NCBI GenBank assembly: GCA_963855995.1
Contig: OY979725.1
Span: 12,752,383-12,816,382 of the forward strand
Length of the DNA: 64,000 nt
Direction: 5' to 3'
Source of the DNA: Muricea muricata
Taxonomy: Eukaryota; Cnidaria; Anthozoa; Malacalcyonacea; Plexauridae
Positions 1 to 23,483 of this stretch are shown here, in pieces. Position 1 is the first letter of the stretch. Every line of letters starts with the position of its first letter. The translations under genes were made by a program, and so were the position numbers. The notes under the pieces were generated by a model, which saw only the letters and a program-made list of their open reading frames with translations, had not been told where the DNA came from and searched no databases.

Positions 1-3000
1 TGAGTTGGCTGGACAGGAATATTTTTTCTCCGAGCATTCGTCAACATCTGTAAGGCAAAAGAACACAAGTACGAAATGATGAGAAGGGTATTTGAAACAG
101 TTTTCATACACGGACTGCTTTCGTTAAATCTCTCCGAGCCTTCTTTACACTGACTTCTTTACACACTTAATGCGAGATGACATTATTGTGTTTATTGGTT
201 TTGCATTCATTTACGTCTATTTACACAAGGAGAGAACAAAAACAAAGTGGATTACAAGAAGACCGTTTGCTGGAGGAAAAAAGACAAGACAACATAACTG
301 AGTCAAAAGCAGCTTGGAGTTGACGACAAAATCATGTATGTTATGGAAATGAACACGAATAATCGAACTCATCACTTTTTACAGTAAAGCTTAAATGTCT
401 TCTGTGACTTTTCGTGAGTGCAAATCATAGATATCTCATATACACTAGATAGCGCATCTGTATAGCAAAAAGTGAAGCCAAAAATGTAAGCGGCATCCAC
501 TCATAACAATAGACAACGGCCATTTTGGTCGTTCCCACTCATAAAAAAAATGCGACAGACTATACCTTTCCTTACCAGATCCAGGAGTGTTGTGGCATTT
601 TGCGTGACCCCCGCAATCATTGCTTTTCAAGACTATACCTTTCTACTATAAAGATCAATGCCCAACATAGTGCTTTGAGTAAGGCCATAAAAACAAGATT
701 TAAAATAGAAATTATTTATTGTGACGTTTCGTCTTAACTTAAGACATCTTCAGACAAGTGGATAATATTACATACAAAGTTTAAATATATATCTATGCTA
801 ATAGTGTTGTTATATTTACAAGGTGTAAAATTACAAGGGTTAATTAAGGATATAGACGTGTGAAGGTGGATAGGACATTACAAACACACACAACATAAAC
901 GACAAATTAGAAGAGGTTAAGAGGAATAGAGTTGCCTTGAACGTTTAGATTAGGTTTGTATTTATTAATGAGGAGACTCTCGTGTATCATTAATTTATAC
1001 GTATACACGAGAGTCTCCTCATTAATAAATACAAACCTAATCTAAACGTTCAAGGCAACTCTATTCCTCTTAACCTCTTCTAATTTGTCGTTTATGTTGT
1101 GTGTGTTTGTAATGTCCTATCCACCTTCACACGTCTATATCCTTAATTAACCCTTGTAATTTTACACCTTGTAAATATAACAACACTATTAGCATAGATA
1201 TATATTTAAACTTTGTATGTAATATTATCCACTTGTCTGAAGATGTCTTAAGTTAAGACGAAACGTCACAATAAATAATTTCTATTTTAAATCTTGTTTT
1301 TATGGCCTTACTCAAAGCACTATGTTGGGCATTGATCTTTATAATAAGAATACGTTTTCCGCCTGGCACGTCTCTGGCTACAGTATTGAATATACCTTTC
1401 TACATTTGTGTATTAAATACATTTTAGCTGTATAAAAGACGACTTTTTGCCAACTTTGTCCATTTCCGCAATACAAAAGACACAAATTATCATGCTCAGT
1501 GTCAACTCCGTGCATGGAACGACAAGCGCCTGCGATCTGGCTTCAACTTTCGCCTGCACACAGTGCAGGAAGCGCCCTCCAGTGTATATGACATACCTAT
1601 GCGACAAACTCTCATCAACTCGTATCCTTGTTAGAGGCTGTCTTATGAGTTATTATAATTGCTAGTTTGCAAATTCATATGTGTTGTGTCCACTAACTGA
1701 TGATAAAGAAGGGAAGACAAAAAGAAGAAACAAAGCATACCAACGCATTTATTATTAACGTATTTTAATCCTTTATTGTAGCATTCACAGGAGAAAGAGC
1801 CAAAAGTGTTTTTACATTTTGATTCAAGATGACAGCCTTGTTGTGCACACTCGTCTATATCTAGGAGAAAAATATACGCAATTATTCAACACTAGGGGTC
1901 CCATAATTGGGAAAACCAACCAAAAAGTATTAGCCTTTGTGTGTATTATCTAATGCAGGAGATTAGATGTGACCTCAAAGGTCCCTCAGGGTAAAAAGAG
2001 CTCGGTCATGAAATGAAAAGCGAGTGTCTGGTATAATTTTTAAAAACATGCGTGCAGTCATCCTACCAATACATTTCCGATCTTTTAATATTAATCCTTG
2101 ACGACAATCACAGAAGCGGAAACCATGCTGGTTGATACATTCCGTGTGAGCCGGACAAACATTCTTCTTCTTCTTACCACCACTACATCTAACTATATGA
2201 AAACATCGAACAGAAAACTTGAATAAACCTGGGTGTATCACTAATACGATGCAATAATCTACTGTGATTTCTGGTGTCAAGATCTCATTTTTTTCTGAAC
2301 TGCGAACTCAATGCACGAAATTTTAATTGGGGTTACAGAATATCCTGATTTTTTAAAAAGATTCCTTACAGTTTCCTGTAGCTTGATGTGTGACCAAAAA
2401 AGTTCAAAGTAAAGTCTTTTAATCAATTTAAACCAGCTATAAAAAAAGTTCTTTTCAAAATTGATACGCTTGGCGTAAAGTAGTAAACATCAGGAATTTT
2501 TCGACGCATTACAACTCGATATTACGCATTAAGAGCGCGCGTTTTAATCGATTTGTATATTTCGTCAATATGCAGAGGTTTAATTTTAGTGCTGCATGTT
2601 GTTTCTTCTGTCTTGTAGTGGCATCTCGGGCTAGGCACTGTTGATAGCAATTTATGCGTCAGCCCCTAAATGCTTCCAAACATTATGGTATACAGTCTAG
2701 GGTCAGTCCTTCACATAGAGCATGCACTACAGAACATACAAGCGTGTATCTTCCTACTTACAGGAGACGTTTTTCTTCAAGGGAGAGTGCTTATAAATCT
2801 AAGAAATTTTAATAGTTTCTTTATCCACAGTGAAGTGTTTGTATAAAATAGCTTACGGGAACCAATCTCTTTCCAGGCATCTTCCACCCAAAAGCTGTCA
2901 AATAAATAGCGTTCTCCGATACAGTACCTGCAGTGCATATATCCTTCTCCTTCACGTGTAAAAATGATTTTCCACGAAATTTTGGAGGGGATGCACATTT

Positions 3001-3794
3001 CAGTTTCGCCATTTCCAAAGGTGGAATGATTCTCAATAATTTATTTTTGGCACGCATAAACCACACAAAATTACAGTCACAATGGATTGGATTGTTTGAT
3101 ATGCGACTGAAATTGGTAGAAAAGATAGGTTTATCACGAGAACACCTTCACGGTAAGCATTACAACAGTTATTGCCTTTAAGTTCTGAGGCAATGTCTTA
3201 GCATGGGACTTTTATAACATGTTCGTGAAAAGAGTTGGTTTGTTCCGGGTACTTAAGTTTTCTCCTACAGGAAAGGTTAGCAGGTAGGGGGACGCTTAAA
3301 TTAAAGGTGTATTTTCTAGCCTGACTGTATGTGAGTCTTGTGTTAGCTGCTCTTGGCCTTGGAAAAAAGCCTTCGACTGGGTCAGATTATAATTGCGTGC
3401 GTTGCAATTCAACTTAGTTCTCTGCCGTTTTGATTACTTTGCTAGAAATATAAGTGATGTTTGATCACTACGAATTGAAGTTGATACTTTGCATGGATTA
3501 GACTAAAGATCTATTGGATTTGCAAAGCTAGGATCATGCACCAGATGATTTGGGTAGATATCGACTCTATATAATGTAGACTACTTACATTACATATCGT
3601 CCACCATATTTGGCAACATCGAGGGGAATATGTTTGAATCCATAATTTCTACATTCCAAATAATGCGGCATTTTTTTACAATCGTCAACAGAAGGTATTT
3701 TTGCCTTGCCTTGGGTCAAAACTACACAAAAATATAATAAAGTTAAGAATGCCAATAACATGGTTCCTCGAAATGACCCAGACATTGCCGGCAT
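1..3794 (-). CDS. Gene 0: LRRNT-LRRCT-EGF surface protein, 5' part (3' end outside window)
   Basis: Exons seen on the minus strand: 3589-3794 (signal peptide and LRRNT), 2928-3106 (LRRCT), 2067-2192 (EGF), 1741-1860 (EGF) and <1-47 (start of a third EGF). The ATG at 3794 is chosen because the protein from there ([11 protein letters not shown]...) matches gene A; the longer open frame to 3821 is 5' UTR by that comparison. The leader is hydrophobic (LLAFLTLLYFCVVLT). The LRRNT-LRRCT junction is phase 2 and joins to [20 protein letters not shown] exons are phase 1-1 with six cysteines, opening D-I/V-D-E-C. No frameshift or stop is visible in these exons. Exons and introns closely match gene A, so this is a recent duplicate. 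Compared with gene A the intron after exon 1741-1860 has about 1.2 kb inserted (410-1612). By family, an extracellular adhesion or receptor-like protein; function unknown. Confidence 0.82.
577..630 (-). pseudogene. Exact 54-bp copy of an EGF exon piece
   Basis: Identical to 4680-4733, the middle of gene A's EGF exon 4628-4747 (coding [17 protein letters not shown]). No splice sites and no rest of the exon are present. It is flanked by short direct repeats (gactatacctttc at 558 and 631) and lies against the large palindrome. Filler DNA or captured host sequence. Confidence 0.85.
647..1343. mobile_element. Palindromic element, two 341-bp arms
   Basis: Arms 647-987 and 1003-1343 are inverted copies that appear identical by eye, with a 15-bp spacer (988-1002). 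There is no open frame of note. The arm carries ctgaagatgtcttaag then ttaagacgaaac, a motif resembling hammerhead-like cores in Penelope-type elements. It lies in an intron of gene 0 and is absent from the matching intron of gene A. Foldback element, head-to-head insertion of a short retroelement copy, or assembly artefact. Confidence 0.8.
1344..1612. other. Rest of the intron insertion in gene 0
   Basis: Sequence without counterpart in gene A's intron; homology resumes near 1612. It contains another gaatatacctttct copy (1387-1400) resembling the short repeats at 558 and 631. A short frame is open on both strands, but no domain or splice context is seen. Confidence 0.35.
2278..2862. other. 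Extra intron block in gene 0 compared with gene A
   Basis: Flanks align to 7790-7800 in gene A, where this block of about 585 bp is missing. It includes a GC-richer patch (gagcgcgcgttttaatcg) near 2532. Either an insertion in gene 0 or a deletion in gene A; no transposon ends identified. Confidence 0.5.
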
Positions 3795-3842
3795 TTTATT
3801 CGTATTACATGCGGCATGCAATTACTTTTCACTAATTGAACA

Positions 3843-3850
3843 TGACGTCA
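3843..3850 (-). promoter_or_regulatory. CRE-like palindrome upstream of gene 0
   Basis: TGACGTCA lies 49 bp upstream of the ATG, within a block (cactaattgaacatgacgtc) conserved upstream of the other array genes. The same octamer is the known full CRE bound by CREB/ATF bZIP proteins. A TATATAAT-like run on the minus strand lies further upstream near 3906-3913. Confidence 0.55.
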
Positions 3851-4011
3851 TAAACAAATTTTACTGCATGCGCGCGCAACATCGGATAAGAAAATACGCC
3901 TCGAAATTATATAGCTCAGCAGTAGAGCTCATTAATCAAGTTAATTAGAACAATTAAAACCCAATTAAGATGAGAAAAAAACAACAACCAAAGTTCAATG
4001 CAAGATTCAAA

Positions 4012-4017
4012 TTTATT
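4012..4017 (-). terminator. Poly(A) signal of gene A
   Basis: AATAAA on the minus strand (in acaataaatttg), about 140 bp past the stop codon at 4153 and only about 218 bp before the ATG of gene 0. Confidence 0.6.
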
Positions 4018-4152
4018 GTATACAGTGTAGAATACAGTAGCAGCCATCATCTATTATATTTCTTCTTGTTAGGAACAGTGGTTATTGAATGTAGAATGTA
4101 ACTTCCATCAGAAGATCTGAAATGTATACGGCACAAACTCCGAAGTTTAAAT

Positions 4153-7100
4153 TTAAGCCAAAGTCAGAGAGATTGCAAAGGTGATAGCCACGATAAGCAA
4201 CGATGTCTTTTGTAGCAGAGTCACACCAGCTAAACAAATAAACAAGCAATCATTCAAGGGATATAACAATAACATACTTTAGGGACAGTAGAGACAGATT
4301 AACAACGGCATGGGAGAGGGGCGTGGAGGGAAAGAGAACTTAGATACATCTGATAAAACGATTTTGTAGCACAATAATTATCTCACCATTTTCGTCTTGA
4401 AGACGACTGTTTTTCACGCAAGGTCCTTTGCCTTTAAGTTGACTAAATCCTTTTCTGCAACGACATTTATAGCTTCCAGGATGGTTTATACAGATAGCAT
4501 TCTTGTGGCAAGCGTGGCGTTTTGTTTTGCATTCATTCACATCTTAAAATGATAGGATACAAGAGAGAATTAATCTTGAATAGACAGATCAACTAGTTTC
4601 TATAACTCGTGGAAACCACTAACAAACCTTGACATTTTCTTCCGTGCCCATGATAGCCTTTCTTACAGATACATTTGTAAGATCCAGGAGTGTTGTGGCA
4701 TTTTGCGTGACCCCCGCAATCATTGCTTTTCAAACATTCATCAACATCTACACAGAAAAACAGTGATGCGCAAAATTTGGAAGTAAAATATAATAAACTT
4801 GATAAGAACGAATATCTATAACACACAAGAAATCATATATATTCCTTACCAACGCAAAGCTTTCCATTCAGTATTTTATATCCAGGAAGGCATTTGCAAG
4901 AATACGAAGAGGCAGTGTTGACACACTTTGAGTTGGCTGGACAGGAATGTTTTTTCTCCAAGCATTCGTCGACATCGATATCTATGGCAAACGAAAACAA
5001 GCAAGAAACGATGAGGAGGATATTTGAAGCATTGTTCTGAACTTTTCTGTACTCGAATTGATAGGTAGCAGGAAACAGGGAAGTAAATAGCCACACAAAA
5101 CATACCAATGCATGAGTTATTAACATGTTTGAATCCTTGCTCACATTCACAGGAGAAAGAGCCCAAAGTGTTTTTACACTTAGAATTAGCTGGGCATGGA
5201 TTTTCTGCACACTCGTCTTTATCTAGAAAAAAGAAACACACGAAATTATTTACCGCTAGCGCTACAGGGCTGGAAAGACGCAAGTCTTGGTATTTGTGTG
5301 CATTGTTGATGTAGTGGATCAGATATGACCTCAGACGACTCTCAGTGGTTTTTTAATGTAAAGCTTAAACTGTCTTCTTTGACAATTCGTGAATACCAAC
5401 TAGCAACAACTTTCATCGTGGTTTGACCTTATTTTAGCAGTTTTGATGACTGCTTGTTTAGAAAATACAATGTGTTGTGTCTTCTAGTACTTACGAAGAG
5501 AAAGGGAACATAAAAACCAACAAAGCATACCAACGCATTGTTCATCAACGTATTCAAATCCGTGTTCACATTTACAGGAGAAAGAGCCAATAGTGTTGTT
5601 ACACTTCGAGTGAGCTGGACAGGGATTTTGTTCACACTCGTTGATATCTAAAAGAAAAACATACGCAATTATTCTGTTGAGGAAGAACCTTTAAAACAAA
5701 ACCAACACTCCTTACCATAACAAAACTCTTCATGTTTTTGATATCCAGGAAGGCATTCACAAGAATACGAAGAGGCAGTGTTGACACATTTTGAGTTGGC
5801 TGGACAGGAATGTTTTTTCTCCAAGCATTCGTCAACATCTAAAAGAACAGAGATACGAAAAGATAAAGAGGATGTTTGTTAAACCTTTGAACTGAAAAAA
5901 TAGACATTGCATGACAGTTTTCTCATTTCTATACAGGTATATTTGCCGCAAAATAACCCAGATTCTCAAAACGTACACAGCCACTTTACTTGCTACAAGT
6001 CAGTAAACTAGCATTGTCACCTACACCTGGCTATAAAATGCTTTTGAAATGACACTCATCCCTATTAAAAACGAACCTATGATCATATTAAAGTAAAAAA
6101 GACAGGACGATAGGATTTACAAAAATCACAAAATACTTTTTATAACACACGCATCGTACTCATTGTTTGAATGACTTTTTGCAGGTTTTCTTGCTTCCAT
6201 GCACGTATAGAGACACATATGCTATAGGCAGGTCAAATTTATACAATTTTCAGAAGTTCGATTTCATGCCGAAAATATTTTCACAGGATGGAAGAAACTG
6301 AACTACATGAGAGTATACAAGGACAAAGAAAAAATTGCAAGAAATATTCGTTCATCAAATTTTATCCAAAATAAAAATTTTGTGTATGTGTCGAGGAACC
6401 TGTACTAATTCAGGAAACCACTTGCACACCTTGACATTTTCTTCCGTTCCCATGATAGCCTTTCTTACAGGTACATTTGTAAGATCCAGGAGTGTTGTCA
6501 CATTTTGCGTCTTTTGCACAATCATTGCTTTTCAAACATTCATTAACATCTACAAAGAAAATTCAGCGATGAATAAATATTAATAGAAGTTCCGTACAAT
6601 AGACTTGATAGAATCTTGAAAAAAAAAGAAACCACACATCCCCTACCTTGGCAAAGCTTTGCATGCATTTTATATCCAGGAAGGCATGCACAAGAATACG
6701 AAGAAACAGCGTTGACACATTTTGAGTTGGCTGGACAGGAATATTTTTTCTCCAAGCATTCGTCAACATCTGTAAGGGAAAAGAACACAAGTATGAAATG
6801 ATGAGAAGGATATTAGTAACAGTTTTCATACACGGACTGCCTCTCAGTTGCATGCCTTCTTTACATTGACTTCTTTACACACTTTATGCCAGCTGCAATT
6901 TATTGTGTTTATTGGTTTTGAACTCACGCACGTCTATTTAGATAAGGAAAGAACAAAAAAAGAATGGACCGCTTGCTGGAGCAACAAAGACAAGAGAAAA
7001 TAACAGGGTTAAAAGCAGATCACAGTTGATGACGAAATCTCTTTCTTCTGACGAAACACTCATTCTTTTAACTTTTTCCACCATAAAGCTATTTTAGTCT

Positions 7101-8726
7101 TCTGTGACTTTCCGTGATTGCCAACTCTCATTGACCTTGTCTGACACTGTCTTAAAAGTTATTATAATTGCTAGAGTACAAATTAATATGTGTTATGTCT
7201 ACTAAATGATAACGAAGAAGGGAAAACAAAAAGAACAAACAAAGCATACCAACGCATTTTTTATTAATGTATTTGAATCCTTTACGGCGACATTGGCAAG
7301 AGAAAGAGCCGAAAGTGTTTTTACATTTTGAGTCAGCAGGACAGGCTTTTTCTTTACACTCGTCTACATCTAGAAGAAAAACACACGCAATTATTCAACA
7401 CTAGGGTCCCATAGTTGGGAAAATCAACCAAAAAGTATTAGCCTTTGTGTGCGCTATCCAATTTAGGGTTCAGATGTGACCTCAAAGGTCCCTCAGGGTA
7501 AAAAGAGTTCGGCCATGAAATGAAAAGCAAGTGTCTGGTATAATTTTTAAAAACATGCGTCCAGCTATCCTACCAATACATTTCCGATCTTTGAATATCA
7601 ATCCTTGACGACAATCACAGAAGCGGAAACCATGCTGGTTGATACATTCCGTGTGAACTGGACAAACATTCTTCTTCTTCTTCTTTTTAGCAACATCACA
7701 TTTAACTATATGAAAACATCAAACAGAAACCTTGAATGAACCTGGGTTTATCATTAATACGATGCAGTAATCTACTGTGATTTCTAGTGCCAGGATCAAT
7801 CTCTTTCCAGGCTTTTTCCTCCCAAAAGCTGTCAAATAAATAGCGTTCTCTGATACAGTACCTGCAGTGCATATATCTTTCTCCTTCGCGAGTAAAAATG
7901 ATTTTCCACGAAATTTGGGAGGAGATGCACATTTCAGCTTCGCCATTTCCATAGGTGGAATGATTCTCAATAATTTATTTTTGGCACGCATAAACCACAC
8001 AAAATTACAGTCACAATGGATTGGATTGTTTGATATGCGACTGAAATTGGTAGAAAAGATAGGTTTATCACGAGAACACCTTCACGGTAAGCATTACAAC
8101 AGGTATTGCCTTTAAGTTCTGAGGCAATGTCTTAGCAGGGGACTTTTATGACATGTTCGTGAAAAGAGTTGGTTTGTTCCGGGTACTTAAGTTTTCTCCT
8201 ACAGGAAAGGTTAGCAGGTAGGGACACGCTTAACTTAAAGTTGTATTTTCTAGCCTGACTGTATGTGAGTCTTGTGTTAGCTGCTCTTGGCATCGTGAAA
8301 AGTCTTCGACTGTGACGGATTAAAATTGCGTCCGTTGCAATTCGACTTAGTTTGCTGCCGTTTTGAATACTTTGCTAGAAATTTAAGTGGTGTTTGATCA
8401 CTATAATTGAAGTTGGTGGTTTGTATGGATTAGATTAACGATCTATTGGATTTGGAAAGCTAGGATCATGCACCAGATGATTGGGGTAGATATCCACTCT
8501 ATATAATGTAGACTACTTACATTACATATCGCGTACCATATTTGGCGACATCGAGAGGAATATGTTTCAATCCACGATTTCTACAATCCAAATAATGCGG
8601 CATTTTTTTACAATCGTCAACAGAAGGTATTTTTGCCTTGCCTTGGGTCAAAACTACACAAAAATGTAATAAAGTCAAAAATGTCAATAAAATGGTCCCT
8701 CGAAACGACCCAGACATTGCCGGCAT
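4153..8726 (-). CDS. Gene A: LRRNT-LRRCT plus ten EGF modules, GPI-anchor-like tail (573 aa)
   Basis: Thirteen exons, minus strand: 8521-8726, 7862-8040, 7574-7705, 7250-7369, 6647-6769, 6430-6549, 5716-5838, 5531-5647, 5106-5222, 4850-4981, 4628-4747, 4387-4542, 4153-4229. They total 1722 nt and all joins have GT-AG borders. Exon 1 gives the signal peptide ([17 protein letters not shown]) and a short LRRNT ([11 protein letters not shown]). Exon 2 is an LRRCT (CDCNFVWF ... C ... DICTAG). Ten EGF modules follow, most opening D-V/I-D/N-E-C with a CxNTxGSxxC core of the calcium-binding type. The last exon codes about 25 residues ([20 protein letters not shown]...) ending without basic residues, as in GPI-anchor signals, so the product is inferred to be GPI-linked and not membrane-spanning. 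EGF modules 3, 5 and 8 ([10 protein letters not shown] type) and 4 and 9 (KSNDC type) are near copies. Ligand and function unknown. Confidence 0.87.
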
Positions 8727-9168: not shown

Positions 9169-9236
9169 TCAGAGAGAGATTGCAAAGGTGATAGCCACGA
9201 TAAGCAACGGTGTCTTTTGTAGCAGAGTCGCAGCAG
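9169..9236 (-). pseudogene. Orphan GPI-type terminal exon (relic of a gene A-like gene)
   Basis: On the minus strand an acceptor (tttag) at 9237-9238 opens a phase-1 exon reading [20 protein letters not shown] then S-L-stop. It is a near copy of gene A's last exon (4153-4229), and upstream intron homology extends to about 9380. There similarity stops just short of where the penultimate EGF exon should be, so no coding exon feeds it. The final residues and the original stop are replaced by a LINE-tail-like insertion (9055-9168), which by chance supplies a TGA two codons later. Treated as a dead remnant from unequal recombination. Read-through splicing from gene B's 3' end is conceivable but has no support here. 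Confidence 0.75.
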
Positions 9237-9649
9237 CTAAACAAATAAGCAAGCAATCATTCAAAGGATATAACAATAACATACTTTAGGGACAGTAGAA
9301 ACAGATTAACAACGGCTTGGGCGAGGGACGTGGAGGGGAAAAGAACTAAGATACATCTGCTGAAAAATTGATCTGGTAGCAAATTTTGCTGCATGTGCAC
9401 GCTAAACATAAGATGTCCATAGCAATTACTATTAACGCAGCATGTCTAGTTATTTTGATGCAATTTAAGCCTGTTTAAATACCCGTAGAAGCCTAGGCTG
9501 TAATCTGATAGCCGAAAGCTTTTAATAAGTAAACATCTTCAGTCGGGAAACGCTTTACAATTCCCAAAATTATAGGAGGTCATTAATTTTGGCACTGAGA
9601 AAGCAATTAAGATTTAATCAAGAGAAAGAATCAACAGGACCAAAGTAAC

Positions 9650-12700: not shown

Positions 12701-14633
12701 TGCTATCAGAAGCAATAGTTGATGAAGTAATTGCGTCTGTTATAAAGATGTTGCACGTTTTTGCTGTTTTCTTTTGAAAAACCTTACCAATACAGCGAAC
12801 TGATGCTTTGCCAGTCACTACGCACGTTGTATCGTTAGTACATGAATGGGCCTTGCAAGGATCTGGTTCTGTTTTCAAACAAATCAATAATATATGTAGT
12901 ATTATTGATACAATCAAGTGCTCTTTCCGCAGTAAATGAAACCTTTTTTACCTTTTTGAGGGCAAACATCGTTCTCCTTTAGTGTATAAACCTGTTTTTC
13001 TAACAATTCCTCTGGCTCTCTGCAAATAATGCCATCGTAGTTGGGTATCCTAAGTCTATTCGATATCAACTTCAGTCGTCGTATGAACCAAACCATGTTA
13101 CAGTCACAAATGTAGTTTCCTCTGAGCGAGCTGAAAAAAATGTCGATATTTCATCATCATAAAGTTACTGCTCAAAAGTTTGAATACGCTTGCTGTGTTT
13201 GGTCTCATTCTACGCTTGTTCTCATTCTGCAAATCCATTTCCTTGACTTTGAGATTATATGTATGCCTACCAGTTGCATTTCAATTGCAAATTGAGATTT
13301 AGAAGACGCAAGTGAGAATCTTTAGCAGTGAAAGAATTACTAAACAAAAAAGCTATTATATCACTTTATCAAAACATGAAACTGCATCTCACATCTTGTA
13401 TTCAAACTTTCGAGCAGTAACTGTATATTTTTCCTTTATGATTTAAACAAATCAAAGCTTAGTTATGACTTTGTCGTAGGTAATTTCTAAAGGGATAGAT
13501 TATATTTTAGACATTACTTTTTAAATTACCAGCTGCCATCGGCATTTGCTCACAAATCTACTTACAATCGAACTTTTGGTACAAATACATCATACGGGAT
13601 ATAACCTAAATCATTATGGTCGCAGTCCCAATGTTTCCTGTTACCACTTGGAGGGTGACAATTCAAATCTTTGTAACTGACTCTTTCTAAAAATATTTTT
13701 AATGTTTGTTAGAGGTAATGCATTATTTTATTTTCTACGTTATAACCTGTTATCTTCTGACACCTTGAGTTCTTGTGTTCTTAAGTTTTTTAAGACTATA
13801 ACAATGTACAAAATCCACCAAAATCCAATCCTAGCTTTCAGTTAGTGTAGTTTGGCGTGTACGATCACGTGTAGTGCATATGTAAATTTTTAGCTGATCC
13901 AGAAGTTCTATGTCGTATATACCTGCGTTACATATGTCTCTTTCTTTCAGATCAACAATTTTTTGTCCATGCATTTTGTCAGGATATGCACAGGTCATCT
14001 CCTTCAGATCCAAAAGATGTTTCTTCATGTAGGGATTCTCACGTAAAAACCATACAAAACTACAGTCACAGTAGTACGGATTTTTGCTCAGCCGACTGAA
14101 ATTCGTAGAAAAGATAACACGCCCATAGTAAGCACCACAACAGCCAAAAAGATAGAACCTTTCGCAATGGTAGAGCGAATAAACAGTAGAACCATTCGAC
14201 GATGTAACATGTCCGCCTATTTGTACGCAGTTTTCTGGCCACAATAAAAGCGAAACAGACAGTCCATCGTTTTTATTATCCAGAAAATACATTTGTAATT
14301 GAGTGGCCAGAATCTGCGTAATGCGACATGCGTGCCCAAACAATCTTCTGTTTATTTTCTCTTCGCCTCTGATGACGAAGGTTCTGTCTCAACATAGGGA
14401 CTTACATGAAATGTCCACGAAATGTATACTCACATTTTATACGCTCCATAATGTTTGAAGAAATCGTAAGGAACATTTTGAAATCCGTGATTTCTACAGT
14501 CCAATACAAGCTCTTCTTTTTCCTCACAATCATAAACAGAAGGCACTTTTACCTCGCCTTGGATCGAACCTACACAATATGACAATAATATCAAGAATAC
14601 CAATAACTTGGTCTCTTGAAACGACTGGAGCAT
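9795..14633 (-). CDS. Gene B: two LRRNT-LRRCT cap pairs, EGF modules, TM helix, cytoplasmic tail (557 aa)
   Basis: Thirteen exons: 14434-14633, 13923-14095, 13566-13686, 12952-13130, 12788-12868, 12477-12605, 12032-12154, 11839-11961, 11638-11757, 11221-11340, 10932-11087, 10504-10601, 9795-9845. They total 1674 nt in one frame. Order: signal peptide ([17 protein letters not shown]); LRRNT1; LRRCT1 ([16 protein letters not shown]); LRRNT2 ([18 protein letters not shown]); LRRCT2 ([15 protein letters not shown]); a short four-cysteine module (DPCKAHSC...); six EGF modules; a helix ([15 protein letters not shown]...) ending YCYHKK; then a separate phase-0 exon coding [16 protein letters not shown]-stop. 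That is a type I membrane protein with a charged tail of about 18 residues. The tail exon is supported by the same exon in gene C. A MITE (10075-10382) lies in the last intron. Function unknown; family logic suggests adhesion or receptor work at the cell surface. Confidence 0.86.
10075..10382. mobile_element. MITE with 64-bp terminal inverted repeats
   Basis: Positions 10075-10138 and 10319-10382 are inverted copies of each other (outer ends ctgattatat...), with about six mismatches over 64 bp. The arms carry cccgcttacccgggatta, itself partly palindromic. The 180-bp core is AT-rich with no transposase. It lies in the intron between the TM and tail exons of gene B. I could not define a clear target-site duplication. 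Confidence 0.8.
12205..12226. repeat. Poly-C tract in a gene B intron
   Basis: A run of about fifteen C residues follows caccg in the intron between exons 12032-12154 and 12477-12605. Homopolymer length is likely to be unreliable in assemblies. No other feature is seen in it. Confidence 0.7.
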
Positions 14634-14703: not shown

Positions 14704-14760
14704 TAATAGAGCTCGCTAATTACGAAAAGATGAATAACTAGAAACAAGCTTTCGTTGAAC

Positions 14761-14896: not shown

Positions 14897-17800
14897 TTAT
14901 TCTGGCAGTAAACTATGTCTTTCTTCCTCGAGTTTCTGTCTTCCTCGCTAAGAGAAGCAAAGGAGGAAATAATACTTAACATGCATTCAATGAACTCGAG
15001 TCGTATATACGTTTATGGGCTTTCATGAATCAAGTTAATGTACCTTTTTGCAGAAACAACATACGCAGCAGACCAGGAAAAGGATAACGAGAACAACATA
15101 GGCCACAGCAGCTATGAGAACGACGGTCAACGATACCGTATCTAGCATGGGATAGAAGGGACTTGTTGACGTTAATAATGGGAGGCAAGGGGGGATGAGG
15201 GGGGAAACATCGGGAGGGCATAACTTTTTAAGACTCTAAAAAGAGTTGTTGGTACACAGTATATTTAAAACAAATATTAAAAATAGTGCTATTTAACCTT
15301 TCTTTTATATGGTCTTAAAAAGTTATGATGCCCTCCCAAGTTTCTACCCGCCCTTTTCCAAAATCTCTAAGAATAATACATTTTAGCGACAGTAAAGACA
15401 GGTAGCCTTCCGAGGGGGGGGGGAGAACTAAGATACATGTGGTAAAACAATCTAGTAGGAAAATGATGCATCATTATCTCACCCTCGCCATCTTCAAAAT
15501 AACTGTCATCGACGCAAGGTCCTTTATCATCAAGTTTACTAAATCCTTTATTGCAACGACATTCAAAGCTTCCAACGTGGTTTATACAGACAGCATTCTT
15601 GTCGCAATCGTGATCCTCTGTTTGACATTCATTCACATCTTAAGACAAACCAAGCTTGATTGAGTGATCAGACTGGTGTCGTGCGTCTAAATTTGTGGTC
15701 TAATTACGGAATATTAGTTGAGAAAATTGTAATGAAAGATGCAAACTACGCTTGCCAAAAGCAAATGAAGATGACATCTTACCGTCACACAAACCATTCT
15801 GAAACTTGTATCCAGAAGGACATTTACAAGAGTACGAACCAGGAGTGTTTATACATTTTGAGCGGTCTGGACAAACATCTTTCTCTGAGCACTCGTCTTC
15901 ATCTGTAAGAAATAAGATGTCAATTTTTATCAAAGAAAATAAAGACATGCGTGATTAAGAACAGGGAAATGATTATATATTTTATATACTGTATCACTGG
16001 CCCTCTTCATTCACGGTAATTCCAAGGAGATCTTGTAGCAATTTCTCTTGGAAACGTTTTTACAAACCTTGACATTTTCTTCCGTTCCCATGATAGCCTT
16101 TCCTACAGCTACATTTGTAAGATCCACGAGTGTTGTGACATTTTGCGTCTTTTGCACAATCATTGCCTTTTAAACATTCATTAACATCTAAACAGAGATA
16201 CAGTGATGGAAAAAATATAGGAAATACTGGACTGAAAGCACAATAAACCTGACAAGAAATAATTTCTAGAAAACAAAAGCAATCACACATTCTTTACCAT
16301 GGCAACGCTTTGCATGCTTTTTATATCCAGGAAAGCATACACAAGAATACGAAGAAACAGTGTTGATACATTTTGAGTTGGCTGGACAATGTTTTTTCTT
16401 CGAGCATTCGTTAACATCTAGGAGAAAATAACACCATTATACATGGCACTTATTCTAGCACCAATCAAATTTACATTGTGAGTTGTTGTTGAAAGTTAAA
16501 ACAAACCTACCGACGCATTTTTTACCATCACGTTTGAATCCTAGTTCACATTCACAAGAGAAAGAGCCAAAAGTGTTAGTACACTTCGAGTGAGCTGGGC
16601 AGAGATTTTTTGTGCACTCATCAACATCTGGAAGATAAATAAATGTTGGAATGTATAAAAGTTGACATACAGCGAGCTACTACAAAAATATCATACCGTA
16701 CCTTTGCATACTTTTCCGTCCCCATGGTAACCCTTTTTACACGAACATTCATAAGAGCCTCGGGTGTTCTTGCATGTGGCAAACTCTGAACAACTATTCT
16801 CGCCCAAACATTCGTCAACATCTGAGAGAATTAATGTATAATAATGTATGTGCAGCAAACACAAATACACTGTTAATGGATAACAGGGTATTCAAGGAGG
16901 AAGCCAGAAGAAAAATAATCTGCGTTTTCATTGAGAAATTTATTCTAAATGTGAGGTTGTTCCACATTTCTTTCAGGGTCAGCAGATCCGCCACTTTATG
17001 ATTGCTTAAAATGGTTGTATCCATGAAACGACATTCTCCACAGTTTGAACACATATAACAGCATATCATGCAGCACTGTCAAAATATCTGGGGCAAATTA
17101 CTACCAATTAGGCATTATACAAAATACAGTAAGCATATTATGTTAACCAAGACGAGTCTGAACGAATATTGAAAATATGGTATCGACCTGATTCACGTCT
17201 GTGAAAGATGCATTTTCTGCACTTGTCTGTCATCAGGTGTTAAAAAAAGATTTAATGGACCGATTGCATTATGGACAGAATTTTAAAAAAAGTTGAAGTG
17301 GGAAAATTTATTACCACAGCATTGAAGAACATCCTAAAATTTGTAAAATTGCAAAGTTTGATCGCGAAATGTTGTAAAATGAGGAAAATATAGCCCTGCA
17401 GAGTTTGCGAATTTTGTATACTTTTGTATTGCGCACTGAAAATTGATACCGTTTTCTCGATGTTGGTATCAATTTTCCGTGCGTAATACAAAAATATACA
17501 AAATGTGCAATCGTCACCGGCTTACATTTTCCACATTTTACAACGTTTTGCAACCAAACTTTGCAATTTTACTAATTTTTGGATGCTCTTCAATGCTGTG
17601 GTAATAAATTTTCCTATTTAAACTTTTTTCAAAATTTTGCCCATAATGCAATCGGTCCATTCAATGTTCATGATATGACTGCAGCCAACACCCACATATT
17701 GTAGGACTTTCAAGGTTGTACGTTAAAACAGATTAATGATTTTGTGACGCTCCCCTCGATGTTAGATAATTTCTGAAGAGCAAATGTGTCTTCGCAAATA

Positions 17801-20800
17801 CAAGTCATACACACGTCAAGAGTGCTACAATTGAGAAAAACTTATCAACTATACGTCTTTCGGGAAGAATTAAACTTACACCGTTGCGAGACCAGCGCAA
17901 TGTTCTAAGCACTGGACTACAGATGAAGACACATTCGGCATTCAGAGTTTTACCCTGCCTCGTCGCATGCAAGCTTGATTCTTCACCGTACCTATGCAGC
18001 GTTTTCTATTTGCGCGAAATCCTTTGTCACAAACACATTTGTAACCACCAGGATAGTTTACGCACCGTCCATTCGCGGAACAGTATTTGAGATCACATTC
18101 ATTAATGTCTGGAAGAGATGAAAAGACAAAAACAAGAAACAATGTAGGTGGTGTATACTTCTACCAGTGGGCCCGAAGTTGCAATGCAATACGAATTTAT
18201 CTATTAATCCTGTTTCAAACGTCGAGCTTTTTATTTCCTAACCTAATGTAAATAAGCTAAACAAAGCCCCGCGACGTCTAAAACAGGTCTTGCACGCGTA
18301 AATGCACAAGCATTCTATCAAGTACGGTTTGCAAGGCTTTTTCCAAGTTGTTGGAACAAGTTTGAAACAAGATGTTGGCAACAAGCCTGACATCAATGCC
18401 AGGTTGTTCTAACAAGACCGATACAGTCATGTTATAAAAATATTATTGTTACAACCTTGTGTTGTCGACAATCTTGTTACAACAGGTCTGTATCAAAATT
18501 GTTTACAAGTAAGGTAGTTATAATTTGAAAAATGTAAGCTTAACAGGAATGATATATGGGTACAAAATGGAAAAGTCTAGCGGGTAGAAATGTCCGTATG
18601 CAACGCTTTAAAATATAAAGAATTCCATTCTTATACTAGGTACGGTACAACTTCCCTTATTTTGACAAATACTTCTTAACCAAAACTTACCTTCACATTT
18701 TTTTCCGCGGTTATATTCTTTGAATCCCAAATTACACCGACATATGTATCCTGGTTGAGTATTAATACATTTTGCATTCTTATCGCAATTGTTTTGATTC
18801 GTCGTGCATTCATCAAAGTCTACATTAAAAAAGATGCAAGATAGACAAATAAAAAAAATGATGCTATTTTCACACCAAAGCTACCAGTAGTTATAGTTGA
18901 TGATCATGTTATTGCGTGTGTTATATAAAGTCACACGTTTTTGGTCTCTTCATTCGAATCTTACCAAGACAGCGATAAGATGTGCCATTGGATTTGCATC
19001 TTGAATATTCAGGACATCGATGAATCGTACAAGGATCTAGTGCTGTTTTCAAACAAAAAAATATAATATTCACCATTATTAATCTTATCACGTCAGAGGC
19101 AATTCATAAAACTAAGCGACAAAGAGTACGTTGCGTTGATGAATCTTAAAGAAGAATAATTGTTTACTATAGCAAGTATCAGTAAATAAATCAGCGTGAC
19201 AAAGAAACCAAAATTACGTGGTAGTAATTAGTAATTAGCTAGGGTCGGTTATACATGAGGTGAATAGCGTTTAAAAATTTTTAGTAACTGGTAAAACCAT
19301 TTTAAAGTTCACAACTTTGAAATTAAATTCAATGCACTGCTTAATATCGATCCCCGCGCAATTGCCCGCTATCCTCTGAATACTGCCTTTCGTACAATTG
19401 GCTCCAGATCTGCACAGTGGTCCAAAGGTGGAGCTTCCGAGTCTTCGCTGAATTGTTAAAACCCTTTTTACCTCCTTCAGGACAAACATCCTTCTCCTGT
19501 AACGCATAAATCTTTTTTCTGCGAAATTTATCTGGCCCCTGGCACTTAATGCTACCGAATTTTCATTTTACATCACGTTCCGACATTTCACTCATTTTTC
19601 GTATGACCAAAACAATGCTGCAGTCACAAGTGAAGCCTCGTTTGAGCGGGCTAAAAGATATTTCATTAGAATATATTTTTAACTTCAGAATTTCATATGA
19701 CCAAAATCAATTATGGCATCTTTTGGCATGTTTTTACACTATTTTTTAAATTGTTGGCTGGCAATGTTATTTTGTCACAACTCTACTCACGATTGCTTTC
19801 CTACATTAATCGGAAGATAACCTGAGTTCTTGCTATTGTCTCTTTCAGGGTCATGCATTATTTTATTTTGTACATTTTTAAGAAGAACTAAGCAGAATAA
19901 AAATTGCAACGGTATAAGCTGCTAATCTTCTGACACTATCGCAAGTTCTATTCATAAAGAATTTCAGATTTTAGTTTTCAAGCCTTTTGAGCAAATTTCT
20001 TTACAAAGCAATATGTCAATGTAGACAATCCATCATCGTTGCCTACGGCTCGCGATCGTTCTCCTATCATTTCAGTTATTGTTATCCATCTGTGGTTTGT
20101 CCACACGATTTGCAAATTTTGCGAGTGTGTGGACACTCGGTTCTACATATTGGAAGAGTATACTGAAGGTCTGTTACTACATGGGTCTTGGCTGGCAGCC
20201 TTGTTGTACTACATTACACAACGAGCTCGGCCACATGCAGAGCTCAAACACAATATTATTCTGTTATTGTCACACTGAGGTTCACGAATTGATTACCAAG
20301 TCACTGCGTGCGCGTTATGGACGAATTTTTTCTTTGGACTAACCTTACCTATTACATTACATCGAACTGTTTCTTTGCCAGCGACTTCGCATGTTGTTAA
20401 TTTGGGGCATGGACGAGACTTGCAGGGATCTGGTATATCTGGAATAGTTAGCTAGACTCGGTTGTACGAAAGGAGAACAGACTCCGAACATGTTCAGTGA
20501 CTCCATTCATTAAACCCATTTTAAAGTTTAGCGTATTCAAGTTAAAGCCAGTTCCCATCTCTCGCGATTTCAATATCTTTGGTGCACGTCATTGCATGCT
20601 TTTTGTAGCTTGCTGTTGCAGTTGAAAAAATCTAGCGATCTTTGCCGCTGAATACCGCTAGCCACCTTATGTACAAATGTGTAAAGCAGTCGGCAAAGTG
20701 GCTAACATAAAGCTTTTGAGTTGATCGCTGTCTTGTTACAATCTATTTATTCATACCTCTTTGAGGACAAACTTCTCTCTCGGTTAACGTATAAATCTTT

Positions 20801-22838
20801 TTTCCGTCAAATTTATCTGACTTTTTGCACAAAAGGCGATTGAAGTTCAGTAATTTACTTGGCGACTCTCGTTTCAGCTGTCTCAGTCGTCGTATGACCC
20901 AAACCATGTTGCAGTCACAGGTGTAGTTTCCTTTGAGTGACCTAAAACAAGTTGATATTTTCATTGTAATATATTTTGCCTCAAGGCTTCATGACGAAAA
21001 TCAATCATCACACTGTGGTGCGTGATGGGTAATCCCTAAAAGGCTCTTCAGGTCATGTTTTCTACAATTGTCGGCTGGCGATAATATTTTGCCACAATTC
21101 TACTTACGATTTATATTTAAAAACGTCCTTTGGGATAAAGCCCAAAGCCTCATAGTCGCAGACCACATCTTCGCTGGCACCACTTGGAGTATGACATTTT
21201 ACTTTCTTCCGATTGTCCCTCTCTAAAAAGTGATTATCATTTTCTCTTTAGCCTCATGCATTTCTTTATTGTCTATCGTCTCTTTCTAAAAAGTGATTAT
21301 CATTTTCTCTTTAGCCTTTAGCATTTCTTTATTCTCTATCGTCCCTTTCTAAAAAGCGATTATCATTTTTCTCTTTAGCCTCATGCATTTCTTTATTCTC
21401 AAACGCATGCTAATTAGTTGCACATCAGTGAACATTTTAAATTTGTTATATTTTGAATTTGGGTTGTAACCGTCCAAAGTTATACTTCTCGGTTAAGTTT
21501 GTTTTTAACCGTCTAACGTTATACATCTCTGTTCAGAGGTATGCTGTATAATTCAACTATATTATGACTTATGTTTAGTTTCTTCTTTTACTTCTGGTGT
21601 TTTTCTCCGAGTGAGAGTATCTATAACCTAACAGAGTCTAACTGTAAGCGTTTCCACTTAGTGGAGTGTTTTTTGGAATAGCTAAATAATCTCGTTTTCG
21701 GTTGTTTCCTGCTGCAAGAGGTTTTAAGACAAAAGTGTCGAAACGAACCTGTCAAATAAATAGAAAATAGTACATACGTATGTGGAAATACCATATTTAT
21801 TTCGATTGTTGCACATATCAACACGAGAAATAAATCTGGTATTTCCAACCACCCATGTATTTTTCTGCCAATTTTAAATACCCAGAAGCTATGTTTAATG
21901 ATTGTTTGAAAAAGCGATAATTTGTACATGTGAAATTATCATAAATAATCTTACATGTAAAATTATCAGTTTTATCAGTGCTCGAAATCCCTGTAAAGCA
22001 TTGCACTTTATAAAATAAATAGCCTTTTTTCAATACAATACCTGTACTGCATATGTCTCTTTCTTTCATTTCAACAATTTTTTGTCCACGCATTTTCTCA
22101 GGATATTCACATCTCATCTCCTCCAAATCCAAAATGTGTTTCTTCATGTCGGCGCCGTCACGTAAAAACCATACCATACGACAGTCACAGTAGTACGGAT
22201 TTTTGCTCAGCCGGCTGAAATTCGTAGAAAAGATAACTTCATGAAACGAACCCTGAAACAGAGCCTTTCGCTTTTGAGGTTTGTTTCGCTTTGTTTTAGC
22301 ATAGGAATTATATAACAGGTTCGTGAAAAGACGGGTTTGCACCGGGTATTCCGGTTTTCTGCTACAGGAATTGTTAGCAGAGTAGAAGACTTGAAGAGAT
22401 GAAGTTTCTAATAGAAAGTCCTTCGACTGGATCCGATTGAAATTGCGTCTTCGTAATTCAGCTCAGCTCTCTGTTGACGTGATTACTTTACTTGAAAGTG
22501 GTGTTTAGTCGCTACGAATGGAAGTTTATAGTTTGCACGCATTGGATTAAAGATCTAGTGGATTTGGAAAGCCAGACACCAGATGATTGAGGTAAATATT
22601 CATCATATATAATGCGTACTACTTACAGTTCATGTTTATACAGCCTATTATATTTGGCGTAATCGTAAGGAACATCTTGGAACCCGTGATTTCTACACTC
22701 AAATGTACGTCCACTTCTTATACAATCCAAATAAGAAAGGACTTTAGCTTTGACTTGGATCAAACCTACACAACATAACAATAATATCAAGAATAACAAT
22801 AAACCGGTCCCTTGAAACGACCCAGGCATGGATGGCAT
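14897..22838 (-). CDS. Gene C: LRR-cap/EGF type I membrane protein with a broken third LRR module (666 aa if skipped)
   Basis: Exons: 22627-22838, 22042-22214, 21108-21222, 20757-20941, 20349-20438, [19791-19841, 19472-19650 decayed], 18965-19042, 18691-18819, 17992-18108, 16702-16821, 16511-16627, 16298-16417, 16068-16187, 15783-15902, 15483-15638, 15044-15141, 14897-14947. Without the bracketed pair the total is 2001 nt, in frame. Start ATG 22838 ([12 protein letters not shown]) is chosen by match to genes 0 and A; the frame extends upstream to 22913. Domains: signal peptide; LRRNT1-LRRCT1; LRRNT2-LRRCT2 ([15 protein letters not shown]); two short DPC modules ([16 protein letters not shown]); eight EGF modules; TM helix ([20 protein letters not shown]) running into CCVCCFCKK; tail exon [16 protein letters not shown]-stop. 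The cysteine cluster at the inner membrane face suggests palmitoylation (inference). Large introns carry a foldback element and repeats. Confidence 0.84.
17254..17661. mobile_element. Long foldback (inverted-repeat) element in a gene C intron
   Basis: The ends at 17254-17274 and 17641-17661 are inverted copies (atggaccgattgcattatgg). Imperfect complementarity continues inward through most of the 408 bp to a centre near 17457, for example tggtatcaatttt against aaaattgatacc. There is no coding capacity. Such whole-length hairpins are typical of foldback or MITE families. The open frames predicted here are by-products of the palindrome. Confidence 0.78.
18340..18510. repeat. Inverted-repeat-rich intron sequence (possible MITE fragment)
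   Basis: The stretch alternates forms of gttgt/acaac and carries complementary pieces such as aacaagaccgatacag and ctgtatc...aacaggtc around a centre near 18440. A similar acaacattgaacaatgttgg style occurs at 54985-55035. It is probably a degraded inverted-repeat element; ends not defined. Confidence 0.4.
19472..19841 (-). pseudogene. Decayed third LRRNT-LRRCT module inside gene C
   Basis: Exon-like 19472-19650 is clearly an LRRCT copy ([15 protein letters not shown] ... CQGPDKF ... EKDVCPEGG) with normal splice borders, but it has an in-frame TGA at 19563-19565. The matching LRRNT-like piece 19791-19841 has lost its cysteine half, and its length (51 nt) does not fit the phase 1-to-2 pattern of its relatives (115 and 121 nt). 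Because the module starts and ends in phase 1 it can be skipped as a block without harm. It may be spliced out, or the transcript including it may be truncated. Confidence 0.72.
20000..20342. other. Unassigned intronic stretch of gene C
   Basis: Between the decayed LRRNT-like piece and the DPC exon at 20349. Two overlapping plus-strand frames run through it (20039-20278 and 20079-20342), but neither shows a recognisable domain or splice context. An internal inverted pair (gtttgtccacacga / gcgagtgtgtggacac) near 20096-20144 suggests repeat origin. Nothing further can be supported. Confidence 0.3.
21215..21404. repeat. Three-copy 63-bp minisatellite covering a splice acceptor of gene C
   Basis: Units start at 21215, 21278 and 21341, each 63-64 bp and highly similar. 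On the minus strand each contains the pyrimidine-rich intron end, the acceptor (ctttttag) and the first bases of the LRRNT2 exon. Unit 1 provides the acceptor used in the gene C model (exon start 21222). Units 2 and 3 offer decoy acceptors upstream. Confidence 0.85.
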
Positions 22839-22886
22839 TTCATTCTTATCCCACGCAGGATGCGATTGGTTTTCACTAATTGAACA

Positions 22887-22894
22887 TGACGACA
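22887..22894 (-). promoter_or_regulatory. Mutated CRE-like site upstream of gene C
   Basis: Same position (-49) and flanks as the TGACGTCA sites of genes 0 and A, but it reads TGACGACA on the plus strand. One base breaks the palindrome, so binding by CREB/ATF-type factors may be weakened (inference). Confidence 0.45.
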
Positions 22895-23193
22895 TAAACA
22901 AATTTTGCTGCATGCGCGCGCAACATCACATCAGAAAATACGCCTCGAAAATGCACATAGGTTGTAGAGCTCATTAACCAAAATAATTAGAAGAATTAGA
23001 ATCTAATGAAGACGAGAAAGAAACACAACCGAAGTGCAATGCATGATTTAAATTTATTGTATACAATGTAGAATACAGTACCAGCCATCATCTATTATAC
23101 TTCTTCTTGTTAGGAACAGTGATTATTGAATGTAGAATGTAACTTCCATCAGAAGATCTGAAATGTATACGGCACAAACTCCGAGGTTTAGAT

Positions 23194-23483
23194 TTACGCC
23201 AAAGTTAGAGAGATTGCAAAGGTGATAGCCACAATAAGCAACGGTGTCTTTTGTAGCAGAGTCACACCAGCTAAAAACAGCTATAAAACACCAGCTATAA
23301 ACAAACACAATGATTCAAGGGATATAACAATAAAATACTTTAGGGACCGTGGCGACAGATTCACAACGGCTTGGGAGATGGGCGTGGAGGGGAAGATAAC
23401 TAAGTTATATCTGATAAAATGATCTAGTAACACAATGATGCATTATTATCTCACCATTTTCTACTTGAAGATGACCGATTCTG
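23194..23483 (-). pseudogene. Gene D relic: 3' end of a gene A-like gene
   Basis: The terminal exon 23194-23270 reads [20 protein letters not shown] and ends LTLA-stop, matching gene A. It is preceded by a conserved intron and by the last about 25 bases of a penultimate EGF exon (from 23455, HLQVEN then a normal donor). Upstream of about 23479 homology ends abruptly and a diverged tandem repeat begins, so all LRR and EGF exons are missing. A matching AATAAA lies at 23053-23058. Non-functional unless spliced to an unseen upstream exon. Confidence 0.8.

What the first reader, a model, noticed from the sequence alone, without database searches (positions are those of the whole stretch)
1..23483. 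Tandem family of LRR-cap/EGF surface proteins with no leucine-rich repeats
In every gene the LRRNT cap is spliced (phase 2) straight onto an LRRCT cap, giving a cap-only module placed before EGF chains. Module number differs: one in genes 0 and A, two in B, two plus a dead third in C. LRR caps normally close the ends of a repeat solenoid, so a cap-only unit multiplied as a cassette is unusual. I do not recognise this architecture as a named family.
Basis: partly seen in the sequence, partly recalled or inferred. Interest (0 to 1): 0.75.

Follow-up and report, generated by a model that had tools for sequence, protein, structure and literature searches.

The report
LRR caps joined without any repeats
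A large tandem family of animal surface-protein genes carries the two end-caps of a leucine-rich-repeat domain fused directly to each other with the repeats missing, followed by a chain of EGF domains, which suggests that the caps alone can work as a small protein module.

Summary
On the minus strand genes C, B, A and 0 each splice an LRRNT exon (out phase 2) onto an LRRCT exon (in phase 2, out phase 1), followed by EGF exons; B and C carry two such modules and C a dead third. The window cuts the array: 7 more genes lie to its left, 11 in all; 5 further modules lie elsewhere in the genome. All 18 NT-CT junctions that I read are cap to cap in phase 2; the introns are 123-533 bp and LRR-like exons in them do not exceed chance, while the same scan finds the 72-nt phase 2-2 LRR exon at both of 2 control loci. 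Family profiles match Slit LRRNT and LRRCT. One LxLxxN-like strand is shared by both caps, so complete repeats are absent, not all LRR-like sequence. Best reading: LRR exons were lost in frame, leaving a phase 1-1 cassette that serves as a compact head on an EGF stalk with a GPI-type or transmembrane end. Ligand and role are unknown. New variant of a known kind; no RNA evidence and no fold of the spliced module.

The parts
14897..22838 (-). Gene C: signal peptide, NT-CT module 1, NT-CT module 2, two 4-Cys 'DPC' exons, 8 EGF_CA, transmembrane segment, short tail (666 aa, 16 exons)
   Evidence: model; EGF_CA, 8 stretches
22627..22838 (-). Gene C exon 1: signal peptide + LRRNT 1, out phase 2
22042..22214 (-). 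Gene C LRRCT 1, in phase 2, out phase 1
21108..21222 (-). Gene C LRRNT 2, in phase 1, out phase 2
20757..20941 (-). Gene C LRRCT 2, in phase 2, out phase 1 (intron to NT2 only 166 bp)
20349..20438 (-). Gene C 4-Cys DPC exon, phase 1-1
19791..19860 (-). Gene C degraded LRRNT 3 (cysteines lost), approximate bounds
   Evidence: by inspection
19476..19646 (-). Gene C dead LRRCT 3, in-frame TGA
18965..19042 (-). Gene C second DPC exon, phase 1-1
15483..18819 (-). Gene C eight EGF exons, all phase 1-1
15044..15141 (-). Gene C transmembrane exon
   Evidence: by inspection
14897..14947 (-). Gene C cytoplasmic tail exon [16 protein letters not shown] (acidic dileucine-like ERHSLL)
   Evidence: motif meaning recalled
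9795..14633 (-). Gene B: two NT-CT modules, DPC exon, 6 EGF_CA, transmembrane segment, tail (557 aa, 13 exons)
14434..14633 (-). Gene B exon 1: signal peptide + LRRNT 1, out phase 2
13923..14095 (-). Gene B LRRCT 1, phase 2 to 1
13566..13686 (-). Gene B LRRNT 2, phase 1 to 2
12952..13130 (-). Gene B LRRCT 2, phase 2 to 1
12788..12868 (-). Gene B DPC exon, phase 1-1
9795..9845 (-). Gene B cytoplasmic tail exon [16 protein letters not shown]
4153..8726 (-). Gene A: one NT-CT module, 10 EGF_CA, GPI-type C-terminal hydrophobic tail (573 aa, 13 exons)
8521..8726 (-). Gene A exon 1: signal peptide + LRRNT, out phase 2
7862..8040 (-). Gene A LRRCT, phase 2 to 1; the AF2 model of this exon alone has LRRCT-bearing proteins as its Foldseek hits
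   Evidence: aligned ranges not shown there
4153..4229 (-). Gene A last exon: [24 protein letters not shown] then stop, GPI-signal-like
   Evidence: GPI reading is by inspection
1..3794 (-). Gene 0 (A-type), 5' part; continues left of the window to a GPI-type tail about 2.5 kb beyond
3589..3794 (-). Gene 0 exon 1: signal peptide + LRRNT, out phase 2
2928..3106 (-). Gene 0 LRRCT, phase 2 to 1
9172..9264 (-). Orphan A-type tail exon downstream of gene B (95.7% over 92 bp to gene A's tail): trace of a lost A-type gene
23017..23275 (-). Orphan A-type 3' end upstream of gene C (93.8% over 260 bp to gene A's tail)

Best explanation
These genes encode membrane-anchored extracellular proteins: signal peptide, one or two compact modules made of an LRRNT cap joined to an LRRCT cap through a single shared LxLxxN-like strand, then a stalk of calcium-binding EGF domains, then a GPI-type tail (8 of 9 A-type genes) or a transmembrane segment with a short acidic-dileucine-like tail (B, C). 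The module arose when phase 2-2 LRR exons of 72 nt were lost from an ordinary capped LRR gene; this keeps the frame and joins the split last codon of the NT exon to the CT exon. The result is a phase 1-1 cassette that fits between phase-1 EGF exons and so can be duplicated inside a gene; whole genes multiplied by unequal crossing-over. Most likely the cap module is the distal adhesion or recognition head and the EGF chain the calcium-stiffened stalk. Shown: architecture, phases, no LRR exon above chance in the NT-CT introns, copy numbers, coding constraint. Inferred: exon loss as the origin, membrane topology, EGF stiffness. Guessed: binding role.
For: Gene models and phases. Array of 11 genes with 13 intact cap pairs, 13 of 13 junctions phase 2. 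Five further modules (L022, L023, L024, L029, L036) in phase 2 as well. LRR-like exons in the 18 introns: 2 overlapping hits in 1 intron against 1.38 expected from shuffles, while the same scan finds the LRR exon in both of 2 control loci: (pattern written after seeing the controls). In those loci (L066, L067) the exon before LRRCT is exactly 72 nt and phase 2-2; a four-cysteine LRRNT exon elsewhere in the genome (L001) also ends in phase 2. PMC11378527 (passages) states 72-bp phase-2 LRR exons in brown algae and phase-2 introns throughout gonadotrophin receptors. Homology: the module profile hits Slit2 (2v9s) separately at NT (10-46, 15.0 bits, i-E 0.19) and CT (23-95, i-E 1.2e-5), whole-sequence E 7.2e-11; NT-only profile E 4.7e-5 to a Slit2 LRRNT. 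CT model: the 50 Foldseek hits shown are LRR proteins such as TLR8, GPIb-IX, 5T4 and Slit. Coding constraint: pooled pN/pS NT 0.77 and CT 0.45 over 36 pairs; 0.62, 0.37 and EGF 0.48 in five genes. Array turnover: 16.3 kb at 98.7% with offset 6,954 and two orphan tails.
Against: No transcript evidence: splices are inferred from consensus sites, frame and conservation. No fold of the joined module was computed. LRRNT matches are below Pfam's cut-off and the NT cap has 2 cysteines where each of the six ordinary LRRNTs that I aligned from this genome has 4. Of 204 Foldseek hits of the CT model none has E<=0.001 (best 0.015), and its five AF2 models range from mean pLDDT 80.9 to 54.1. No intermediate gene with one or two LRR exons and this EGF tail was found, so exon loss is inferred. 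Nothing here tests ligand binding; the caps are not more diverse than the EGFs overall, apart from one codon. In PMC3542428 (passages) short Toll truncations fused to a VLR LRRCT did not express, so such short fusions are not generally tolerated.
Confidence: 0.62

Rival explanations
1. The module is an ordinary short capped LRR domain whose few LRR exons are unrecognised (diverged, in the intron, or alternatively spliced), like GPIb-beta or GPIX with their one or two repeats.
For: Relatives with very few repeats exist: Gp1bb and Gp9 are listed with 2 LRRs in Table 1 of PMC2235866 (passage), and PMC8976409 gives GPIb-beta a single LRR (passage). GPIX and GPIb-beta chains are among the sequence hits and GPIb-IX among the fold hits. 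One of 18 introns (L022) does hold two overlapping LRR-pattern candidates, at the rate expected by chance.
Against: Introns are as short as 123 and 166 bp, too short, by inference, for two introns plus a 72-nt exon; 17 of 18 introns hold no candidate while the scan finds both controls; the continuing frame is closed by stops in 18 of 18 introns, so they cannot be read through.
Confidence: 0.08
2. Only the LRRCT part is LRR-derived; the first exon is an unrelated signal-peptide exon with two cysteines, so this is a CT-only domain with a new N-terminal arm rather than two fused caps.
For: The NT exon is short, has 2 instead of 4 cysteines and does not reach Pfam's LRRNT cut-off; in the module profile the Slit2 NT stretch alone has i-E 0.19.
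Against: The NT-only profile's top three PDB hits are Slit LRRNTs (E 4.7e-5, 4.2e-4, 0.022), aligned from a cysteine near the chain's start to, in the first two, the first LxLxxN strand; profile-profile match to six ordinary LRRNTs of the same genome, probability 85%, E 5.8e-6; the second modules of B and C carry the NT exon again, without a signal peptide; the NT exon ends in the same phase as a four-cysteine LRRNT exon.
Confidence: 0.1
3. The caps are only a degenerate N-terminal leftover without a function of their own; the EGF chain is the working part and the array is a rapidly turning-over, partly decaying family.
For: One module in C is dead, two tails are orphaned, NT pN/pS 0.62-0.77 is weaker constraint than CT, g-6 has TAG in place of the first ATG (a second Met stands at residue 4).
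Against: Ten positions incl. all six cysteines are invariant in the 13 modules aligned, down to 26% identity; CT pN/pS 0.37-0.45 is below that of the EGF exons, 0.48; the cassette was kept in two copies in B and C.
Confidence: 0.2

Closest known systems
Slit (capped LRR domains followed by EGF repeats)
   Same: Closest LRRNT sequences in the PDB; the module profile matches NT and CT of one Slit2 chain in two separate stretches; caps before EGF repeats (Slit's EGFs recalled).
   Different: LRRs stand between the caps in Slit (about 95 residues between the two matched stretches in 2v9s); here none. Slit is secreted and ends in LamG and CTCK domains (recalled); here GPI-type or transmembrane ends.
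Platelet GPIb-beta and GPIX
   Same: Small LRRNT-LRRCT units next to the membrane with short tails; GPIX and GPIb-beta are among the sequence hits (E 0.0099 and 0.081), GPIb-IX chains among the fold hits.
   Different: They keep one LRR (GPIb-beta in PMC8976409, passage) or two by another count (PMC2235866 Table 1), have no EGF chain, and are not cassettes (recalled).
Extracellular LRR superfamily as catalogued in PMC2235866
   Same: Signal peptide, LRRNT, LRRCT, membrane anchor.
   Different: In the part of its Table 1 that I saw the smallest number of LRRs between an LRRNT and an LRRCT is 2; no zero-LRR protein is in that part.
Calcium-binding EGF (EGF_CA) stalk proteins
   Same: 10, 6 and 8 EGF_CA stretches in A, B and C, EGF exons phase 1-1.
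   Different: The cap module in front.
Polycystin-1 N-terminus (capped pair of LRRs, recalled)
   Same: Weak NCBIfam match over the CT of C module 1 (TIGR00864, E 0.014).
   Different: Far below that model's cut-off; polycystin keeps LRRs (recalled) and is a large channel-like protein.

Membership tests
Extracellular LRR proteins with cysteine-rich caps | LRRNT cap | tested here: met
   NT-only profile: Slit LRRNTs first, E 4.7e-5; hhalign to own-genome LRRNTs, probability 85%; but below Pfam's LRRNT cut-off and with 2 cysteines instead of 4
Extracellular LRR proteins with cysteine-rich caps | LRRCT cap with CDC, W and the last two cysteines | tested here: met
   Invariant in the 13 modules aligned (in the wider CT alignment of 18 exons the cysteines and D are invariant, W nearly so); profile hits LRRCT-bearing proteins, whole-sequence E to 3.6e-12; 2 array CT exons reach Pfam's LRRCT cut-off; Foldseek hits shown are LRR proteins, none with E<=0.001
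Extracellular LRR proteins with cysteine-rich caps | At least one complete LRR between the caps | tested here: not met
   LRR-pattern exons in 1 of 18 NT-CT introns, at chance level (2 hits, 1.38 expected); 2 of 2 controls found
Slit | Several LRR domains with repeats, EGF repeats, LamG, C-terminal cystine knot | tested here: not met
   Pfam shows EGF families but no LRR, LamG or knot at its cut-offs in A, B, C
GPIb-beta/GPIX-like minimal LRR domains | One LRR between LRRNT and LRRCT | tested here: not met
GPIb-beta/GPIX-like minimal LRR domains | The joined caps fold as one unit | not tested
EGF_CA stalk proteins | Consecutive EGF_CA domains | tested here: met
   10, 6 and 8 stretches in A, B, C
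GPI-anchored proteins (A-type genes) | C-terminal hydrophobic signal, no cytoplasmic tail | tested here: inconclusive
   Sequence of A's last exon fits by inspection; a tail exon like it follows 8 of 9 A-type genes, not g-7; no predictor was run

The most novel reading that the evidence does not exclude
The fused LRRNT-LRRCT pair is an autonomous, mobile domain in its own right, a 'zero-repeat' LRR fold of about 95 residues with six conserved cysteines and one shared strand, that spread by exon phase through this genome (at least 16 genes at several sites) as the recognition head of a GPI- or membrane-anchored EGF receptor family; one hypervariable residue beside the shared strand (T, G, M, R, D, K among nine A-type copies) is its specificity site.
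Probability: 0.25. Interest if true: 0.68.

Novelty: new variant of a known kind. Interest (0 to 1): 0.5.

Why it matters
LRR caps are regarded as covers for the ends of a repeat solenoid; [quoted passage not shown] A natural family, kept in many copies, whose caps are joined with no complete repeat between them would set the lower limit of the LRR fold. The 72-nt phase 2-2 exon logic gives a simple, testable route by which a domain can shed its core and keep its ends. It would also add a tandem, turning-over family of surface proteins to look at for adhesion or recognition in what is probably an early-branching animal.

Tried and rejected
A first scan for LRR exons in the introns used a motif that spans the exon boundary; run on the two controls it found neither, so its zero result is discarded (the notebook entry still quotes it) and replaced, whose pattern was written after seeing the two control exons and so is fitted to them. 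A relaxed form of the first motif gave candidates in 2 of 18 introns and also missed both controls. Pfam on whole proteins misses the caps nearly completely (one LRRNT match, E 0.13) and would have wrongly suggested EGF-only proteins. Positive selection on the caps as a whole was considered and rejected (pooled pN/pS below 1; single pairs exceed 1 for NT, such as 0 against g-3); the one hypervariable codon is significant under random placement of 28 changes over 99 residues (P 0.0008), but the test was chosen after seeing the codon, so I treat it as a lead. Loci on C1, C16, C3 and C5 brought in by the CT query are LRR proteins with repeats and were left out of the family; C15 (L005, L038), C8 and C10:3119481 were not classified. 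L063 and the second modules of L029 and L036 were not counted because I could not read a clear NT exon in front of them. Subscription journals and domain databases such as InterPro were not searchable. Other species could not be searched: no animal genome but the window's own is held. The phage search and the NCBIfam scan added little.

Full report
What is in the window. On the minus strand between 22838 and the window's left end lie four genes. Hand-built models with GT-AG introns are open throughout for C (22838-14897, 16 exons, 666 aa), B (14633-9795, 13 exons, 557 aa) and A (8726-4153, 13 exons, 573 aa); gene 0 (from 3794) runs off the window and was modelled only in part. Each begins with a signal peptide (by inspection) and an exon that ends in phase 2, followed by an exon that starts in phase 2 and ends in phase 1. 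The first has the C..CRN.G...IP.D pattern of an LRRNT, the second the NP..CDC..VW...C...C pattern of an LRRCT. B and C have a second such pair, entered in phase 1. In C a third pair is broken: the NT part has lost its cysteines and the CT part has an in-frame TGA. After the caps come short 4-Cys 'DPC' exons (B, C) and EGF exons, phase 1-1; Pfam counts 10, 6 and 8 EGF_CA stretches in A, B and C. B and C end in a transmembrane exon plus a short tail containing ERDSLL or ERHSLL; A ends in a hydrophobic stretch and stop that looks like a GPI signal.

The array is bigger than the window. The window is G000:C10:12752383-12816382 of a 453-Mb assembly in 74 contigs. Fetching the left flank showed seven more genes with A-type caps, down to about 46 kb left of the window: 11 genes and 13 intact cap pairs. 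A GPI-type tail exon follows 8 of the 9 A-type genes; the leftmost, g-7, lacks it and has an open, strongly hydrophobic segment about 0.5 kb after its last EGF exon, perhaps a transmembrane exon. Copies g-3 to g-5 are recent: 16.3 kb aligns to itself at 98.7% with an offset of 6,954. Orphan A-type tails after B and before C suggest that A-type genes have been lost there. With the CT exon of A as query the genome gives 32 matches at E<=10, with two further CT queries 21 and 31 at E<=1; the tool calls such counts lower bounds. Of the 32, 14 are in the array (the dead copy included), 5 belong to further cap-only genes (L022, L024 and L029 at C10:12.99 Mb, L023 at C10:11.90 Mb, L036 at C2:18.47 Mb), 10 are LRR proteins with repeats (C1, C16, C3, C5) and 3 were not classified (C15, C8, C10:3119481).

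Are the caps really joined? The 13 array junctions and the 5 others (read) are donor phase 2 to acceptor phase 2, 18 of 18. The introns are 123-533 bp, each with stops in the continuing frame. A scan for open, phase 2-2, AG/GT-bounded exons with an LRR pattern gives 2 overlapping hits in 1 of 18 introns against 1.38 expected from shuffles. The same scan finds the LRR exon in both control loci, L066 and L067, where it is exactly 72 nt and phase 2-2 and precedes a phase-2 LRRCT exon; only that much of those two genes was seen, and the pattern was drawn up after seeing those exons. An earlier scan failed its control and is discarded. A four-cysteine LRRNT exon elsewhere in the genome also ends in phase 2 (L001). 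PMC11378527 (passages) reports 72-bp phase-2 LRR exons in brown algae and phase-2 introns in gonadotrophin receptors. So removal of any number of LRR exons would leave NT in frame with CT.

Are they really caps? Thirteen of the 18 spliced modules (the others are near copies) align with ten invariant columns: both NT cysteines, P28, N45, the CDC and W, and the last two cysteines. Pfam alone is weak: LRRCT for 6 and LRRNT for 3 of 13 modules at E<=1, though two CT exons of the array just reach Pfam's LRRCT cut-off in the genome scan. The module profile matches LRR proteins of the PDB (134 sequences at E<=0.01, best 60 shown) with whole-sequence E down to 3.6e-12, mainly over the CT; in Slit2 (2v9s) it matches NT (positions 10-46, i-E 0.19) and CT (23-95, i-E 1.2e-5) in two separate stretches. 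An NT-only profile finds Slit LRRNTs as its first three of 14 hits at E<=10 (E 4.7e-5, 4.2e-4, 0.022), and hhalign to six ordinary LRRNTs of the same genome gives probability 85%. Positions 39-45 of the module thus align both with the first strand after Slit's LRRNT and with the last strand before its LRRCT: one strand serves both caps. The AF2 model of the CT exon alone (18 sequences, best mean pLDDT 81, five models 81 to 54) has LRR proteins as all 50 Foldseek hits shown of 204, none with E<=0.001; the table does not give the aligned ranges. The joined module was not folded.

Constraint. Over nine A-type genes (36 pairs) pooled pN/pS is 0.77 for mature NT and 0.45 for CT; in five genes 0.62, 0.37 and, for ten EGF exons of which some lacked genes, 0.48. 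The caps are under purifying selection, CT more than NT. One codon stands out: residue 65 is T, G, G, M, R, R, R, D, K, with at least 5 changes on the tree where other mature positions have 0-2 (P 0.0008 for random placement; chosen after the fact). It lies four residues before the codon that the splice splits.

Mechanism. Most likely the protein is a surface adhesin or receptor: cap module at the tip, calcium-stiffened EGF stalk, membrane anchor. Architecture and phases are shown; origin by loss of LRR exons is a strong inference without an intermediate gene in hand; the binding role is a guess from domain kinds. The cassette being phase 1-1 explains its duplication in B and C between EGF-type phase-1 introns.

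Known or new. In the part of Table 1 of PMC2235866 that I saw the fewest LRRs between two caps is 2, as in GPIb-beta and GPIX; PMC8976409 gives GPIb-beta one. The literature searches brought up no cap pair without repeats in the listings and passages that I saw, but subscription papers and domain databases were out of reach. I call it a new variant of a known kind: caps of the extracellular LRR family without their repeats.

Noticed in passing
28257-28610, 32888-33310 and 33795-34565 (+): Two DM-domain (DMRT-like) exons in tandem, the second followed by an exon with a DMA motif and a zinc ribbon, right beside the array (Pfam).
   Followed up: partly
10075-10382: Inverted repeat, 72-nt arms 89% complementary with 164 nt between, inside the last intron of gene B; looks like a small non-autonomous transposon.
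   Followed up: partly
8532-8534 (gene A residue 65), and the same codon in eight other A-type genes: Six different residues among nine copies at one codon beside the cap junction; other variable mature cap positions have two.
   Followed up: partly
Left of the window, gene g-6 (window coordinate -35950): TAG stands where the other copies have the first ATG; a second Met follows at residue 4.
   Followed up: no
Left of the window, gene g-7 (window coordinate about -47041): No GPI-type tail; instead an open hydrophobic segment after the last EGF exon, so this gene may be transmembrane although its caps are A-type.
   Followed up: no
9172-9264 and 23017-23275 (-): Orphan GPI-type tail exons with 3' flank, traces of lost A-type genes.
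   Followed up: partly
G000:C1:100068659-100069087 (-): GFP-family match with three TAA in frame across it, E 9.2e-12; may span introns or be a pseudogene.
   Followed up: no
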